Of a DNA stretch of 64,000 bases, positions 4,701-46,447 are shown piece after piece. The stretch comes from a virus. The DNA is taken from the IMG/VR virus record IMGVR_UViG_3300022074_000027, positions 1-64,000 of that record. One strand, 5' to 3'. Both the position numbers and the translations under genes were made by a program. Position 1 is the stretch's first letter, and each line of letters opens with the position of its first letter. A model generated the notes under the pieces. It was not told where the DNA came from and ran no database searches. It was given only the letters and a program-made list of their open reading frames with translations.

Positions 4701-4890
4701 TAGTGTATCTCCTATTAGGTCTACGAGGTGGATTAGTTGCAAGGTCTTTACACCTCGCAGAGAGTTCTTTATCTCTCTTTACAAGTTCTGCATTATCGTA
4801 TTCCAATTTACGGATATACGACTTTTGCTCATCTACCTTTGCATGGTAGAAATCTCGCTCTTTCATAACTTCTAGTGCTTCACTCTTCAT
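4687..4890 (-). CDS. Small coiled-coil protein
   Basis: 67 residues. The first ~50 form a charged heptad-like helix (KSYIRKLEYDNAELVKRDKELSA), followed by a basic Pro/Arg-rich tail (NPPRRPNRRY) that could bind nucleic acid. A TTGACT-17-TAGAAT promoter lies just upstream, inside gp59. Function unknown. Confidence 0.6.
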   Translation of the reverse strand: MKSEALEVMKERDFYHAKVDEQKSYIRKLEYDNAELVKRDKELSARCKDLATNPPRRPNRRYTNGRG

Positions 4891-5482
4891 AATCAGAATA
4901 CTCCTTAATTAGTTTGATTGTCTTTATTCTATACCATTCTTTATCAAAAGTCAAGACAGAACGGTAATTTTCTATAAGTTTTTTACAGTCTGGCCATAGT
5001 ATATTTTCTTCTATATCTCTATCCCATTTTTTAGAATATGAAAATAATGATTCCAATATTACTACAGTTTCAGTACTAACTTTTGCACCCAACCATTGTT
5101 TTAATAACATTGGGTGTTGACCATCTTTTACATTCAATACATTTTCTATATTACCACCTTTTCTAATAATGTTTACTAAATCTGTTTCAAATGTATATTT
5201 TAAACTCTGTTGTCTTTTTTGATATTCAACATAAGTTACATCATCAAAGTTTCCAATCCAACCTTTGGGGTCAGATATAAAATTAGAGATGAAAAATTGT
5301 TTGGTATCATCTTTATATTTTCTACCAACTCTACCAAAAAAAGACCTATCACTCCTTTTCAAGAATGAATCTAGGGTAACACTAGTTTTACCGTGATATT
5401 TGTTGAAATCATAATCACTATTGAAGTGTGATTTTAATGCAATATAGATTTTGTAAGCGTCAAAAGCATCCATGTTCATCAT
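4880..5482 (-). CDS. 59: DNA helicase loader gp59
   Basis: 200 residues, close to the 217 of T4 gp59, which loads gp41 helicase onto gp32-coated forks. Matching features in order are the N-terminal AYKIYIALKSHFN helix, FFGRVGRKYK, FISNFISDPKGWIGN, the YVEYQKRQQSLKYTF helix and the conserved C-terminal helical domain. It lies next to gp33, with gp32 nearby, matching the T4 gene order 32-59-33 with ThyX inserted. The start at 5482 overlaps the gp33 stop. Confidence 0.88.
   Translation of the reverse strand: MMNMDAFDAYKIYIALKSHFNSDYDFNKYHGKTSVTLDSFLKRSDRSFFGRVGRKYKDDTKQFFISNFISDPKGWIGNFDDVTYVEYQKRQQSLKYTFETDLVNIIRKGGNIENVLNVKDGQHPMLLKQWLGAKVSTETVVILESLFSYSKKWDRDIEENILWPDCKKLIENYRSVLTFDKEWYRIKTIKLIKEYSDYEE
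4926..4954 (-). promoter_or_regulatory. Early sigma70-type promoter inside gp59
   Basis: Minus strand: TTGACT (4949-4954), 17-bp spacer, TAGAAT (4926-4931). It could start transcription for the coiled-coil gene, thyX and onward independently of gp59. Confidence 0.6.
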
Positions 5483-6079: not shown

Positions 6080-6358
6080 AATTTAGTGGTGATGTTTCTG
6101 TTTCCAAGTACACCACCGAAACTCAGTACGATTAAGCTGCTTGAGCGTAATCTACATATGCATTGTTATCGTTTGCATTTACGAGTTTTGACCTATTACG
6201 CAGTCAACCGATAATTCTACTCTCATCTCTACATATTAGTCGAACCTATTTCACCCCCATCATAAGCACACGATAACTGTGCTTCCATGTGTTTATGGTG
6301 GAGGTGGAGGGTATCGCACCCTCGTCCTAATCATGCGTTGAATCGTATCAACGAATTA
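6080..6358 (-). ncRNA. ssrA: Circularly permuted (two-piece) tmRNA
   Basis: Read on the minus strand, the acceptor piece comes first. It holds a P2 strand (CATGATTAG, 6327-6335), a T stem GAGGG/CCCTC with the 7-nt loop TGCGATA (6307-6323), and the acceptor strand CACCTCC followed by ACCA (3' end at 6296). After a ~37-nt intervening segment the coding piece begins at 6258 with GGGGGTGAAATAGGTTCGAC, the classic tmRNA 5' end. The acceptor stem pairs over 7 bp with a G3-U70 wobble, the alanyl-tRNA synthetase identity element. CTAAT-ATG of the coding piece pairs with the P2 strand. The tag frame lies at 6132-6176. A GTGGTG/CACCAC hairpin closes the 3' end near 6086. Acceptor-before-coding order is known from alphaproteobacteria and some cyanobacteria. 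Outer ends are estimates. Confidence 0.93.
6132..6176 (-). other. tmRNA proteolysis-tag reading frame
   Basis: GCA resume codon, fourteen sense codons and TAA encode ANDNNAYVDYAQAA. With the alanine carried by tmRNA the tag would be AANDNNAYVDYAQAA. The ANDN start and small hydrophobic AA end fit tags recognised by ClpXP/SspB-type systems in proteobacteria. Confidence 0.9.
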
Positions 6359-6363
6359 TGTTC

Positions 6364-6394
6364 TATTTATATCAGATTATGATACAGAAGTCAA
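6364..6394 (-). promoter_or_regulatory. Superimposed early and late promoters of the tmRNA
   Basis: Minus strand: TTGACT (6389-6394), 17-bp spacer, TATAAA (6366-6371), continuing as the exact late octamer TATAAATA (6364-6371). Transcription would start near 6359, just before the acceptor piece. The -35 lies within the 3' end of the nuclease gene. Confidence 0.8.
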
Positions 6395-6793
6395 GTCAAC
6401 TTTTACTTTTTCTCTATTTAAAATATGCTCTTCTTCTATTTCATCTTTTGATTGACCATGATAACGTACTGCATGGTGATTATCAACAAGAATTTGATTG
6501 ATGTTATATTCCCCACCAAACCAAATCTCACCTAATATTCTACCAAACTTACCTTTACCATCTTTGAATGTTTTCAAAGTAAGGTCACCAGCATTTGTCC
6601 ATTTAACTAAGAAGTCCTTAGCTGCATTACCATATACTTTTTCAACTTTGTCAGAAGTTCTTGATTCTGGAGTGTCGATACCGTACAATCTAATTCTTTG
6701 TTTACGCATCCATACACCAAAACCCAAGTCAATGTCAACATCAATTGTATCTCCGTCAACTACTTTGACAAGTTTACACTTATACTCATACAC
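6377..6793 (-). CDS. Staphylococcal-nuclease-like thermonuclease
   Basis: 138 residues of SNase fold. The catalytic set is in place: DGDT at 13-16 with following acidic residues for calcium, Arg35 (RIRLYGIDTPE), Glu43 and Arg85 (FGRILGEI). These enzymes hydrolyse DNA or RNA phosphodiester bonds. No signal peptide is visible, so it likely acts in the cytoplasm, perhaps in host nucleic-acid degradation for nucleotide scavenging. It overlaps the upstream gene by 8 bp. Confidence 0.88.
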   Translation of the reverse strand: MYEYKCKLVKVVDGDTIDVDIDLGFGVWMRKQRIRLYGIDTPESRTSDKVEKVYGNAAKDFLVKWTNAGDLTLKTFKDGKGKFGRILGEIWFGGEYNINQILVDNHHAVRYHGQSKDEIEEEHILNREKVKVDLTSVS

Positions 6794-45252: not shown

Positions 45253-46447
45253 TTTTAGTCTCCTTATATGGTTTTAGTATATTATTATAAATGTTGTTTG
45301 ATAAGTAGTGCATACAAAGTGGTGCAACCATCAATCCTATTCGTGCAAGATTTTCATTTAGTTTACCAGTAAGTTTATAATCTTCTGGAAGTGTCATAAT
45401 CCTTGCAGCCTCAAGTGTAGTATAAACTCTATCTTCCTCTGGATGTAAATGAACACCAAGTGAAGTTTGTAAACCTTGTTCAGACAAAGTATGACTTGGT
45501 TGATTCCAAGGTACTCTTCTTGATTGATAGAAACTATTTTTTCTCTCTGGTAACACTTTACCTCTTTTCTTTCTATGTTCAATCCACTTGTCAAACCAAG
45601 GGGTCACTACATCATCTCCAACTGAAACGACTTTATCTGGATTCTTTGGTAATCGTTTCATCCACTTATATTTAGCGCTTTTCTCCATAGCCATTCTTAA
45701 ATCATATGCTTCAGACATATTTTGGTTTGTCTTTTGCAAATCATTAATTGCATCATGTATAGTATGAACATCTGTATCTGGCTCTGGATAAACAGTACTA
45801 TCTAAACACATAAACGGTAATCCTATATCATCCATAACATCATTACGAACTGATACAATAAACACTCTTTCTCTTTTTTGTGGAACACCATAGTATTGAC
45901 CTTTCATAACTCTAAACACAGTTGTGTATCCACACTTTTCAAAGTCATTTACCATTCTTTGTAAATGTTCTTTTGCATATGTCATTGTAAGACCTTTTAC
46001 ATTTTCACACACAACTACTTTAGGTTTTAATTCGTTTGTAATACGAATCTGTTCCCAAGTCAAATCTTCAATATTCTTTTGTTTAACACCATATGCAGTT
46101 TTCTCTTTACCCCAACCTGCTTGTTTAGTACCAGACATTGAAAATGGTGGACAAGGTGGAGAACCATCAAGTATGTCTAACTCTCCAACTTTAAGACCAG
46201 TAAGTTCCATAATCTGTTTACCAGTAACATTTCTTATATCACCACATATGTTTGGTGTTCCTGGCCAGTTCGCAAGATAATCTTGCATTGCAACTTTCTG
46301 AAACTCATTTACAAATAAACATTGTCCACCAGATAGTTTATAACCACTAGATGAACCACCACCACCAGAAAAAAAAGAAATATAAGTAAACAGTTTTCTA
46401 TCTGCTGACTTTTGTAAATCATCTAGTGTATAACGAAAATATCTCAC
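45233..46447 (-). CDS. DNA cytosine-C5 methyltransferase
   Basis: 404 residues, GTG start at 46447 overlapping the polymerase stop as GTGA. Motifs in order: FFSGGGGSSSG (motif I, 25-35), SPPCPPFS (motif IV, catalytic Cys99), CENV (motif VI, 147-150), QKRERV (motif VIII, 190-195), a target-recognition region, then LARIGLMVAP-like motif X. It transfers methyl from SAM to cytosine C5. No restriction enzyme is nearby, so this is a stand-alone phage enzyme paired with the TET-like dioxygenase. Confidence 0.93.
   Translation of the reverse strand: MRYFRYTLDDLQKSADRKLFTYISFFSGGGGSSSGYKLSGGQCLFVNEFQKVAMQDYLANWPGTPNICGDIRNVTGKQIMELTGLKVGELDILDGSPPCPPFSMSGTKQAGWGKEKTAYGVKQKNIEDLTWEQIRITNELKPKVVVCENVKGLTMTYAKEHLQRMVNDFEKCGYTTVFRVMKGQYYGVPQKRERVFIVSVRNDVMDDIGLPFMCLDSTVYPEPDTDVHTIHDAINDLQKTNQNMSEAYDLRMAMEKSAKYKWMKRLPKNPDKVVSVGDDVVTPWFDKWIEHRKKRGKVLPERKNSFYQSRRVPWNQPSHTLSEQGLQTSLGVHLHPEEDRVYTTLEAARIMTLPEDYKLTGKLNENLARIGLMVAPLCMHYLSNNIYNNILKPYKETKNANVYS

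What the first reader, a model, noticed from the sequence alone, without database searches (positions are those of the whole stretch)
6080..6358. Circularly permuted two-piece tmRNA encoded by the phage
Seen: acceptor piece with T arm and CCACCA first, a ~37-nt intervening segment, then the GGGGG...GGTTCGAC coding piece with an in-frame tag. The acceptor stem pairs perfectly with the alanine-identity G3-U70 wobble, and a P2 helix joins the two pieces. Known: permuted tmRNA is a feature of alphaproteobacteria and some cyanobacteria. The phage may bring its own ribosome-rescue RNA to keep translation running on degraded host mRNA, and the tag may send host fragments to proteolysis for amino acids.
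Basis: partly seen in the sequence, partly recalled or inferred. Interest (0 to 1): 0.92.

Follow-up and report, generated by a model that had tools for sequence, protein, structure and literature searches.

The report
Marine phage's own ribosome-rescue RNA
A marine T4-like phage carries its own two-piece ribosome-rescue RNA (a permuted tmRNA), which is a known kind of gene, but in many of its relatives the throw-away stretch in the middle of that RNA gene has been taken over by tiny, previously unannotated protein genes.

Summary
On the minus strand at about 6085-6359 lies a complete circularly permuted tmRNA (RF04321 117 bits, RF01849 112 bits; ARAGORN tag ANDNNAYVDYAQAA). Acceptor stem with G3-U70, T arm and P2 helix are backed by compensatory changes in ten relatives. 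The record is a fragment of a Melnitz-like marine T4-type phage. The same gene at the same locus, and the same functional ideas, were published for phage Melnitz in 2022, so the window gene itself is a new member of a known kind. New here: (1) the gene has its own conserved promoter (TTGACT-N17-TATAAATA), whose -10 doubles as a T4 late box; (2) the tag ends in AQAA, while every other well-formed phage tag and all SAR11 tags seen end in L/I/V/M-AA; (3) sampled phage permuted tmRNAs separate from alphaproteobacterial and SAR11 ones (support 100/99); (4) in many relatives, Melnitz included, the intervening segment (37 nt and empty in this window) holds small ORFs of several unrelated families with codon-level selection (pN/pS 0.17-0.30), or structured-looking inserts. 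I found no report of (4). RNA processing, tagging and microprotein expression are untested.

The parts
6365..6394 (-). Own promoter: -35 TTGACT (6394-6389), 17-nt spacer, -10 TATAAAT (6371-6365); the TATAAATA at 6371-6364 is also the T4-type late-promoter box
   Evidence: Same spacing and place (-100/-77 from the CCA) in all 13 Melnitz-clade copies with upstream sequence, on divergent flanks; absent from Mosig and L009. TATAAATA occurs 6 times in the window, all on the minus strand, a number not above chance. Not in the generic sigma-70 list, which demands T at position 6 of the -10.
6296..6359 (-). Acceptor (tRNA-like) piece: 5' strand of P2, T arm, 3' acceptor strand, encoded CCA ending at 6296
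   Evidence: RF04321 and RF01849 matches; covariation
6307..6323 (-). T arm GAGGG-UGCGAUA-CCCUC
   Evidence: Sequence; 3 of 5 pairs with double changes, 100% paired
6259..6295 (-). Intervening segment, 37 nt, extends the acceptor stem as a hairpin; no Shine-Dalgarno-led ORF here (the slot is empty in this phage)
   Evidence: relatives carry 80-267-nt inserts here
6085..6258 (-). Coding (mRNA-like) piece: 5' acceptor strand GGGGGUG, D-loop GGUUCGAC, 3' strand of P2, tag frame, 3' hairpin
6132..6176 (-). Tag reading frame GCA AAC GAT ... GCT CAA GCA GCT TAA = ANDNNAYVDYAQAA*
   Evidence: ARAGORN; identical tag in independent contigs L246, L247, L253 and L298
6086..6116 (-). 3'-terminal hairpin GUGGUG...CACCAC (alpha-type 3' element)
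   Evidence: RF01849 match through model end; 95% of cells paired, no double changes
6377..6793 (-). Upstream gene: staphylococcal-nuclease-like protein; its 3' end overlaps the tmRNA promoter
   Evidence: PF00565 53.4 bits
5693..6064 (-). Downstream ORF, 123 aa, start codon about 20 nt after the tmRNA; homologue elsewhere in the Melnitz genome
5479..5718 (-). gp33-like late-transcription coactivator
   Evidence: 60% identical to the Melnitz protein annotated late-transcription coactivator
4880..5482 (-). gp59 helicase loader; shows the conserved synteny
   Evidence: PF08993, phrog_269

Best explanation
A functional permuted tmRNA of a virus-borne lineage, carried by a Melnitz-like marine T4-type phage. 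Proposed steps: (1) transcription from its own sigma-70 promoter, whose -10 can also serve as a T4-type late promoter [sequence conservation shown; use inferred]; (2) the precursor folds so that CCA and GGGGG are brought together, RNase P and 3'-end nucleases remove the 37-nt intervening hairpin, and two pieces stay joined by the acceptor stem and P2 [fold and covariation shown; cleavage inferred from the family]; (3) host AlaRS charges it through G3-U70 and host SmpB delivers it to stalled ribosomes [identity element shown; the rest inferred; no phage SmpB found]; (4) the tag ANDNNAYVDYAQAA is added and ribosomes are recycled during infection, when mRNA breakdown produces many non-stop messages [inferred]. 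The unusual AQAA end suggests rescue matters more than proteolysis [inference]. In relatives the intervening segment doubles as a slot for microprotein genes or structured RNA; in this window the slot is empty.
For: CM and ARAGORN hits; compensatory changes in acceptor stem, P2 and T arm; complete tag with resume codon and stop, no decay; promoter conserved at fixed distance in 13 of 13 clade members; conserved locus GH108 - PDDEXK - tmRNA - gp33 - gp59 - ThyX in the window and Melnitz, and in Mosig with ThyX and gp59 in swapped order; 12 of 12 contigs recovered through gp59 carry a tmRNA; sampled phage tmRNAs are split from cellular ones with 100/99 support.
Against: No RNA or infection data exist for this phage. 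No SmpB in G000 (a fragment), Melnitz, Mosig or HTVC008M, so function depends on an unidentified host. The AQAA end departs from the usual degron. Host unknown (nearest isolate infects OM43, other pelagimyophages infect SAR11).
Confidence: 0.82

Rival explanations
1. A decoy or dominant-negative tmRNA: the phage version competes with host tmRNA for SmpB and puts on a tag that is a poor degron, so rescued proteins escape ClpXP.
For: The AQAA end stands alone: all 37 SAR11 tags end in ALAA/AIAA and phage tags in L/I/V/M-AA apart from a few malformed ARAGORN calls; it is kept in three divergent RNA backgrounds (window, L253, L298). A tag-less tmRNA of phage DS6A inhibits endogenous tmRNA (PMC11915505).
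Against: The close relative L376 has AIAA, and the swapped-tag relative L034 has ALAA, so the group as a whole uses normal degrons. Some alphaproteobacterial tags also lack the hydrophobic residue (RAAA, KAAA, ARAA). Tag identity across backgrounds may be recombination of one block, since its DNA is identical.
Confidence: 0.15
2. A passenger gene captured from a SAR11 or other host, as a prophage-excision relic or recent transfer, without function.
For: Host ssrA is a common integration site, and Buchholz et al. propose acquisition from alphaproteobacteria.
Against: Compensatory evolution and a conserved promoter show selection. Phage and cellular sequences fall on opposite sides of a branch with support 100/99, so it is not a recent SAR11 capture. 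The locus is conserved across the phage group.
Confidence: 0.05
3. The small ORFs in relatives' intervening segments are chance reading frames kept open by RNA structure, not genes.
For: Some inserts (L249, L423, L433, L435 and others) show no ORF and look like structured RNA.
Against: ORF-frame pN/pS 0.17-0.30 in four unrelated families, lower than in either other frame of the same DNA; SD+ATG ORFs of 25 or more codons in 9 of 27 insert clusters versus mean 0.84, maximum 4 in 500 shuffles; one family (xYEDLC) exists mostly as free-standing genes elsewhere.
Confidence: 0.1

Closest known systems
ssrA of Methylophilales phage Melnitz EXVC044M (MZ577097; Buchholz et al. 2022, PMC9004378)
   Same: Permuted alpha-type tmRNA, same place in the genome (after the PDDEXK nuclease, before gp33/gp59), same promoter arrangement, related tag (ANDNYVPVDYALAA)
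   Different: Melnitz has a 142-nt intervening segment with an unannotated 54-codon ORF and a glutamine riboswitch just after the tmRNA; the window has 37 nt, no ORF, no riboswitch above cut-off, and an AQAA tag end
ssrA of Pelagibacter phages Mosig EXVC030M and HTVC008M
   Same: Permuted phage tmRNA between nuclease genes and gp33
   Different: Short tags (GEDNFALAA, ANFNEYALAA); no TTGACW-N17-TATAAAT promoter in Mosig; not annotated in HTVC008M
Alphaproteobacterial two-piece tmRNA (RF01849), including SAR11 ssrA
   Same: Permuted layout, G3-U70, alpha-type 3' hairpin element; T loop of the same general type
   Different: SAR11 tags ANESYALAA/ANDKFALAA; intervening segment 10-12 nt; T loop GGCRGUA rather than the window's UGCGAUA; phage sequences split off with support 100/99
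Reported insertions in tmRNA intervening sequences (one tRNA-Ala, one repetitive element; PMC11915505)
   Same: Foreign sequence in the removed segment of a permuted tmRNA
   Different: Single curiosities in cellular genomes; no small-protein genes reported

Membership tests
Permuted (two-piece) tmRNA, RF04321 / RF01849 | Covariance-model score above the curated cut-off | tested here: met
   117.1 bits vs 47; 111.6 vs 50
Permuted (two-piece) tmRNA, RF04321 / RF01849 | Acceptor piece with T arm and CCA precedes the tag-coding piece, intervening segment between them | tested here: met
   CCA end 6296, segment 6295-6259, coding piece from 6258
Permuted (two-piece) tmRNA, RF04321 / RF01849 | 7-bp acceptor stem with G3-U70, and P2 joining the pieces | tested here: met
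   All pairs form; P2 and acceptor show compensatory changes
Permuted (two-piece) tmRNA, RF04321 / RF01849 | Tag reading frame with resume codon and stop, hydrophobic-Ala-Ala C-terminus | tested here: inconclusive
   Frame intact, ends ...YAQAA: Gln replaces the usual Leu/Val/Met/Ile
Permuted (two-piece) tmRNA, RF04321 / RF01849 | Precursor cleaved into two pieces, alanylated, SmpB-bound | not testable with these tools
   Needs RNA from infected cells
Melnitz-like phage ssrA | Synteny: GH108, PDDEXK nuclease, tmRNA, gp33, gp59, ThyX, gp32-like SSB | tested here: met
   (in Melnitz the GH108 gene lies further upstream)
Melnitz-like phage ssrA | Glutamine riboswitch next to the tmRNA (common but not defining in the 2022 paper) | tested here: not met
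   No glutamine riboswitch in the window at gathering score, nor around the gene at E<=5; present in Melnitz at 52.8 bits
Melnitz-like phage ssrA | Cargo ORF in the intervening segment (proposed here, variable in the group) | tested here: not met
   Window segment is 37 nt with no SD-led ORF

The most novel reading that the evidence does not exclude
In the phage tmRNA lineage to which the window gene belongs, the intervening segment is a gene slot: unrelated microprotein families (about 29-78 aa, several membrane-spanning) are translated from the tmRNA precursor. Where the stop codon lies inside the mature coding piece, maturation of the tmRNA would cut it off and turn the remnant into a non-stop message for that same tmRNA, which could couple the microprotein to ribosome rescue (this last step is much less certain than the slot itself, about 0.2). 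The window copy is an empty version.
Probability: 0.75. Interest if true: 0.72.

Novelty: new variant of a known kind. Interest (0 to 1): 0.55.

Why it matters
Phage tmRNAs are known, but what they do is untested. Three features make that testable in a cultured system (Melnitz on Methylophilales H5P1): the gene has its own conserved promoter with early and late signatures, some phages alter the degradation end of the tag, and many use the discarded middle of the RNA to encode small proteins that annotation pipelines miss because they lie inside a gene called SsrA. A coding slot inside a processed structural RNA would be an unusual gene arrangement, and the phage/cell split of the tree argues against the published idea that these genes are recent captures from SAR11. 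The window gene on its own is another member of a published kind; the variant status refers to the lineage.

Tried and rejected
(a) ORF in the window's own intervening segment: ATG at segment position 8 reads MEAQLSCAYDGGEIGSTNM* with no Shine-Dalgarno; rejected as chance. (b) Glutamine riboswitch as part of this gene: absent in the window; in Melnitz the aptamer (L002 8191-8239) begins after the tmRNA match ends (8183), so it more likely controls gp33 than the tmRNA. (c) TATAAATA as a window-wide late-promoter signal: 6 copies, 9 expected by chance; only the same-strand pattern and conserved position at the tmRNA are informative. (d) Known families for the microproteins: nothing convincing in PHROGs or Pfam; F2, F3, F5 and one F6 member have no match in the phage collection and F1 only in the four Melnitz isolates, under 'SsrA'. 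(e) Rfam families in the non-coding inserts: none; fold z-scores mixed, so 'structured' is only an impression. (f) SmpB in the phages: none. (g) Literature for proteins encoded in tmRNA intervening sequences: none found, but the library is open-access only.

Full report
CHECK. The window is 64,000 of 69,581 bases of an IMG/VR virus record. Rfam finds two matches above cut-off in it, both the same object on the minus strand: tmRNA_permuted (6359-6132, 117.1 bits) and alpha_tmRNA (6398-6085, 111.6 bits). ARAGORN independently reports a permuted tmRNA with tag ANDNNAYVDYAQAA. Reading the sequence: acceptor piece ending CCUCCACCA at 6296, a 37-nt segment, then GGGGGUGAAAUAGGUUCGAC from 6258.

STRUCTURE. 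On an alignment of ten relatives I counted acceptor stem, T arm, both parts of P2 and the 3' hairpin: 98.1% of cells paired, 10 of 31 pairs with changes on both sides, covariation 0.283 versus 0.127 in shuffles (0 of 500) and at most 0.094 when partners are slid. The acceptor A67-U6 becomes G67-C6 in three sequences, and three of five T-arm pairs change on both sides. The structure was derived from the window sequence, so percent-paired is favoured, but the double changes are not.

WHOSE PHAGE. 13 kb of the window matches phage Melnitz over 45% of its length at 75% identity. The neighbourhood GH108 endolysin, PDDEXK exonuclease, SNase-like nuclease, tmRNA, 123-aa ORF, gp33, gp59, ThyX, gp32 matches Melnitz and, in part, Mosig. 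The host is unknown: Melnitz infects OM43, Mosig and HTVC008M infect SAR11.

KNOWN. Buchholz et al. 2022 (PMC9004378) describe this gene in Melnitz, found 53 two-piece tmRNA structures in isolate phages and permuted tmRNAs in 17 of 47 related contigs, and proposed maintenance of translation or tagging of host proteins for amino acids. The window gene is therefore another member.

PROMOTER. All 13 Melnitz-clade copies with upstream sequence have TTGAC(A/T)-N17-TATAAAT at about -100/-77 from the CCA, on flanks that differ strongly. It is a near-consensus sigma-70 promoter whose -10 plus the next base is also the T4 late box TATAAATA. Mosig and L009 lack it. Early-plus-late expression is inferred.

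TAG. SAR11 genomes encode ANESYALAA, ANDKFALAA or near variants, all ending ALAA or AIAA (37 of 37). The window tag ends AQAA. Its tag DNA is identical in L253 and L298, whose acceptor halves and intervening segments differ from the window's, while L034 shares the window's 5' half but has the tag ANDNFASEDYALAA: the gene is mosaic, with a swappable tag half. L376 has AIAA. A weaker degron is my inference.

ORIGIN. In a 119-row tree phage sequences separate from alphaproteobacterial and SAR11 ones by a branch with support 100/99, present in 100% of 200 bootstrap trees. This argues against a recent SAR11 capture. Limits: 266 columns, viral rows fetched by sequence patterns, no beta- or cyanobacterial rows, and bootstrap not fully settled.

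THE INTERVENING SEGMENT AS A SLOT (in relatives, not in the window). Segment length is 10-12 nt in SAR11 (29 genes), 6-76 in other alphaproteobacteria (24), but 18-149 in viral copies parsed the same way, with 176-267 nt in further cases. Among 106 viral sites with CCTCCACCATAAACAC and a downstream D-loop motif, 39 have 80 nt or more (the sample is biased by the pattern). Two scans for long versions gave 28 and 63 contigs. Inserts usually sit inside a conserved TAAACAC...GTGTTTATGAT hairpin that lengthens the acceptor stem.

Many inserts contain a Shine-Dalgarno sequence and ATG about 18-20 nt after the CCA and an ORF: F1 MFKWLSKTRLVVITRDYF... (6 distinct segments, Melnitz among them), F2 MIEKFFLRFKWYRNF... 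(23 contigs), F3 MHDVVTYLLLRFVQYGLIVLLIGAL... (membrane), F4, F5 MDREIWIIYLIMVLIAVAML... (membrane; no SD), F6 ...HRxHTxxYEDLC, F7, F8, and ORFs of 75-78 codons (L305, L362, L377). In the ORF frame pN/pS is F1 0.30, F2 0.22, F3 0.29, F5 0.17; other frames of the same DNA give 0.32-1.82 (pairwise values are not independent, and for F2 the contrast with one frame is small). SD-led ORFs of 25 or more codons occur in 9 of 27 insert clusters, against a mean of 0.84 and maximum of 4 in 500 dinucleotide shuffles. All 24 F2 and 11 F3 relatives found lie inside tmRNA segments (33 by pattern, the other two, L587 and L610, by reading the sequence). F6 has 326 relatives, of which the best 80 were kept; 58 of those 80 have no tmRNA or tRNA nearby, while it sits inside a tmRNA in at least six lineages. 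F1 in the four Melnitz isolates lies under the feature 'SsrA' and is unannotated.

In several families (F1, F3, F4, F7, F8) the stop codon falls 13-42 nt inside the mature coding piece. RNase P cleavage at GGGGG would remove it, so the leftover would be a non-stop message for the same tmRNA. In F2, F5 and F6 the stop lies within the segment, so such coupling cannot be general.

MECHANISM AND CONFIDENCE. That the window holds an intact, selected tmRNA gene is close to certain. That it rescues ribosomes with host SmpB is the best inference. That the tag feeds proteolysis is less likely here than in relatives because of AQAA. That relatives encode microproteins in the slot rests on comparative evidence only.

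Noticed in passing
L002 (MZ577097.1), record 46096-46257: The cultured phage Melnitz carries an unannotated 54-codon ORF with Shine-Dalgarno sequence that starts in the intervening segment of its tmRNA (pN/pS 0.30 within family F1).
   Followed up: yes
L249, L250, L252, L255 and L437 (intervening segments): A related 102-103-nt insert without a convincing ORF is shared by close relatives of the window phage and by L437; other inserts (L423, L433, L435, L391, L314, L365) also look like non-coding RNA, with no Rfam match.
   Followed up: partly
L498-L577: A widespread unnamed phage microprotein family (about 32 aa, ...HRxHTxxYEDLC[MK]), mostly free-standing, sometimes directly after or inside a tmRNA.
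   Followed up: partly
SAR11 genomes, e.g. G066:C7 18627-21317, G041:C7 11202-15821: 70-150-nt weak alpha_tmRNA matches cluster within a few kb of the intact tmRNA gene in many SAR11 genomes; they look like scars of islands integrating at the tmRNA.
   Followed up: no
L244 5121-5462 (NC_020484.1): Pelagibacter phage HTVC008M has a permuted tmRNA (tag ANFNEYALAA) that is not in its annotation.
   Followed up: partly
L002 8191-8239: The glutamine riboswitch said to control Melnitz ssrA starts after the tmRNA match ends, so it more probably controls the downstream gp33 gene.
   Followed up: partly
L429 1719-1923 and L003 7371-7578: manA RNA motifs lie near phage tmRNA genes; in L429 it begins 10 nt after the tmRNA.
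   Followed up: no
window 2826, 3866, 6364, 19831, 40374, 42152: All six TATAAATA late-promoter-like boxes are on the minus (coding) strand, several just upstream of genes, although the total is not above chance.
   Followed up: partly
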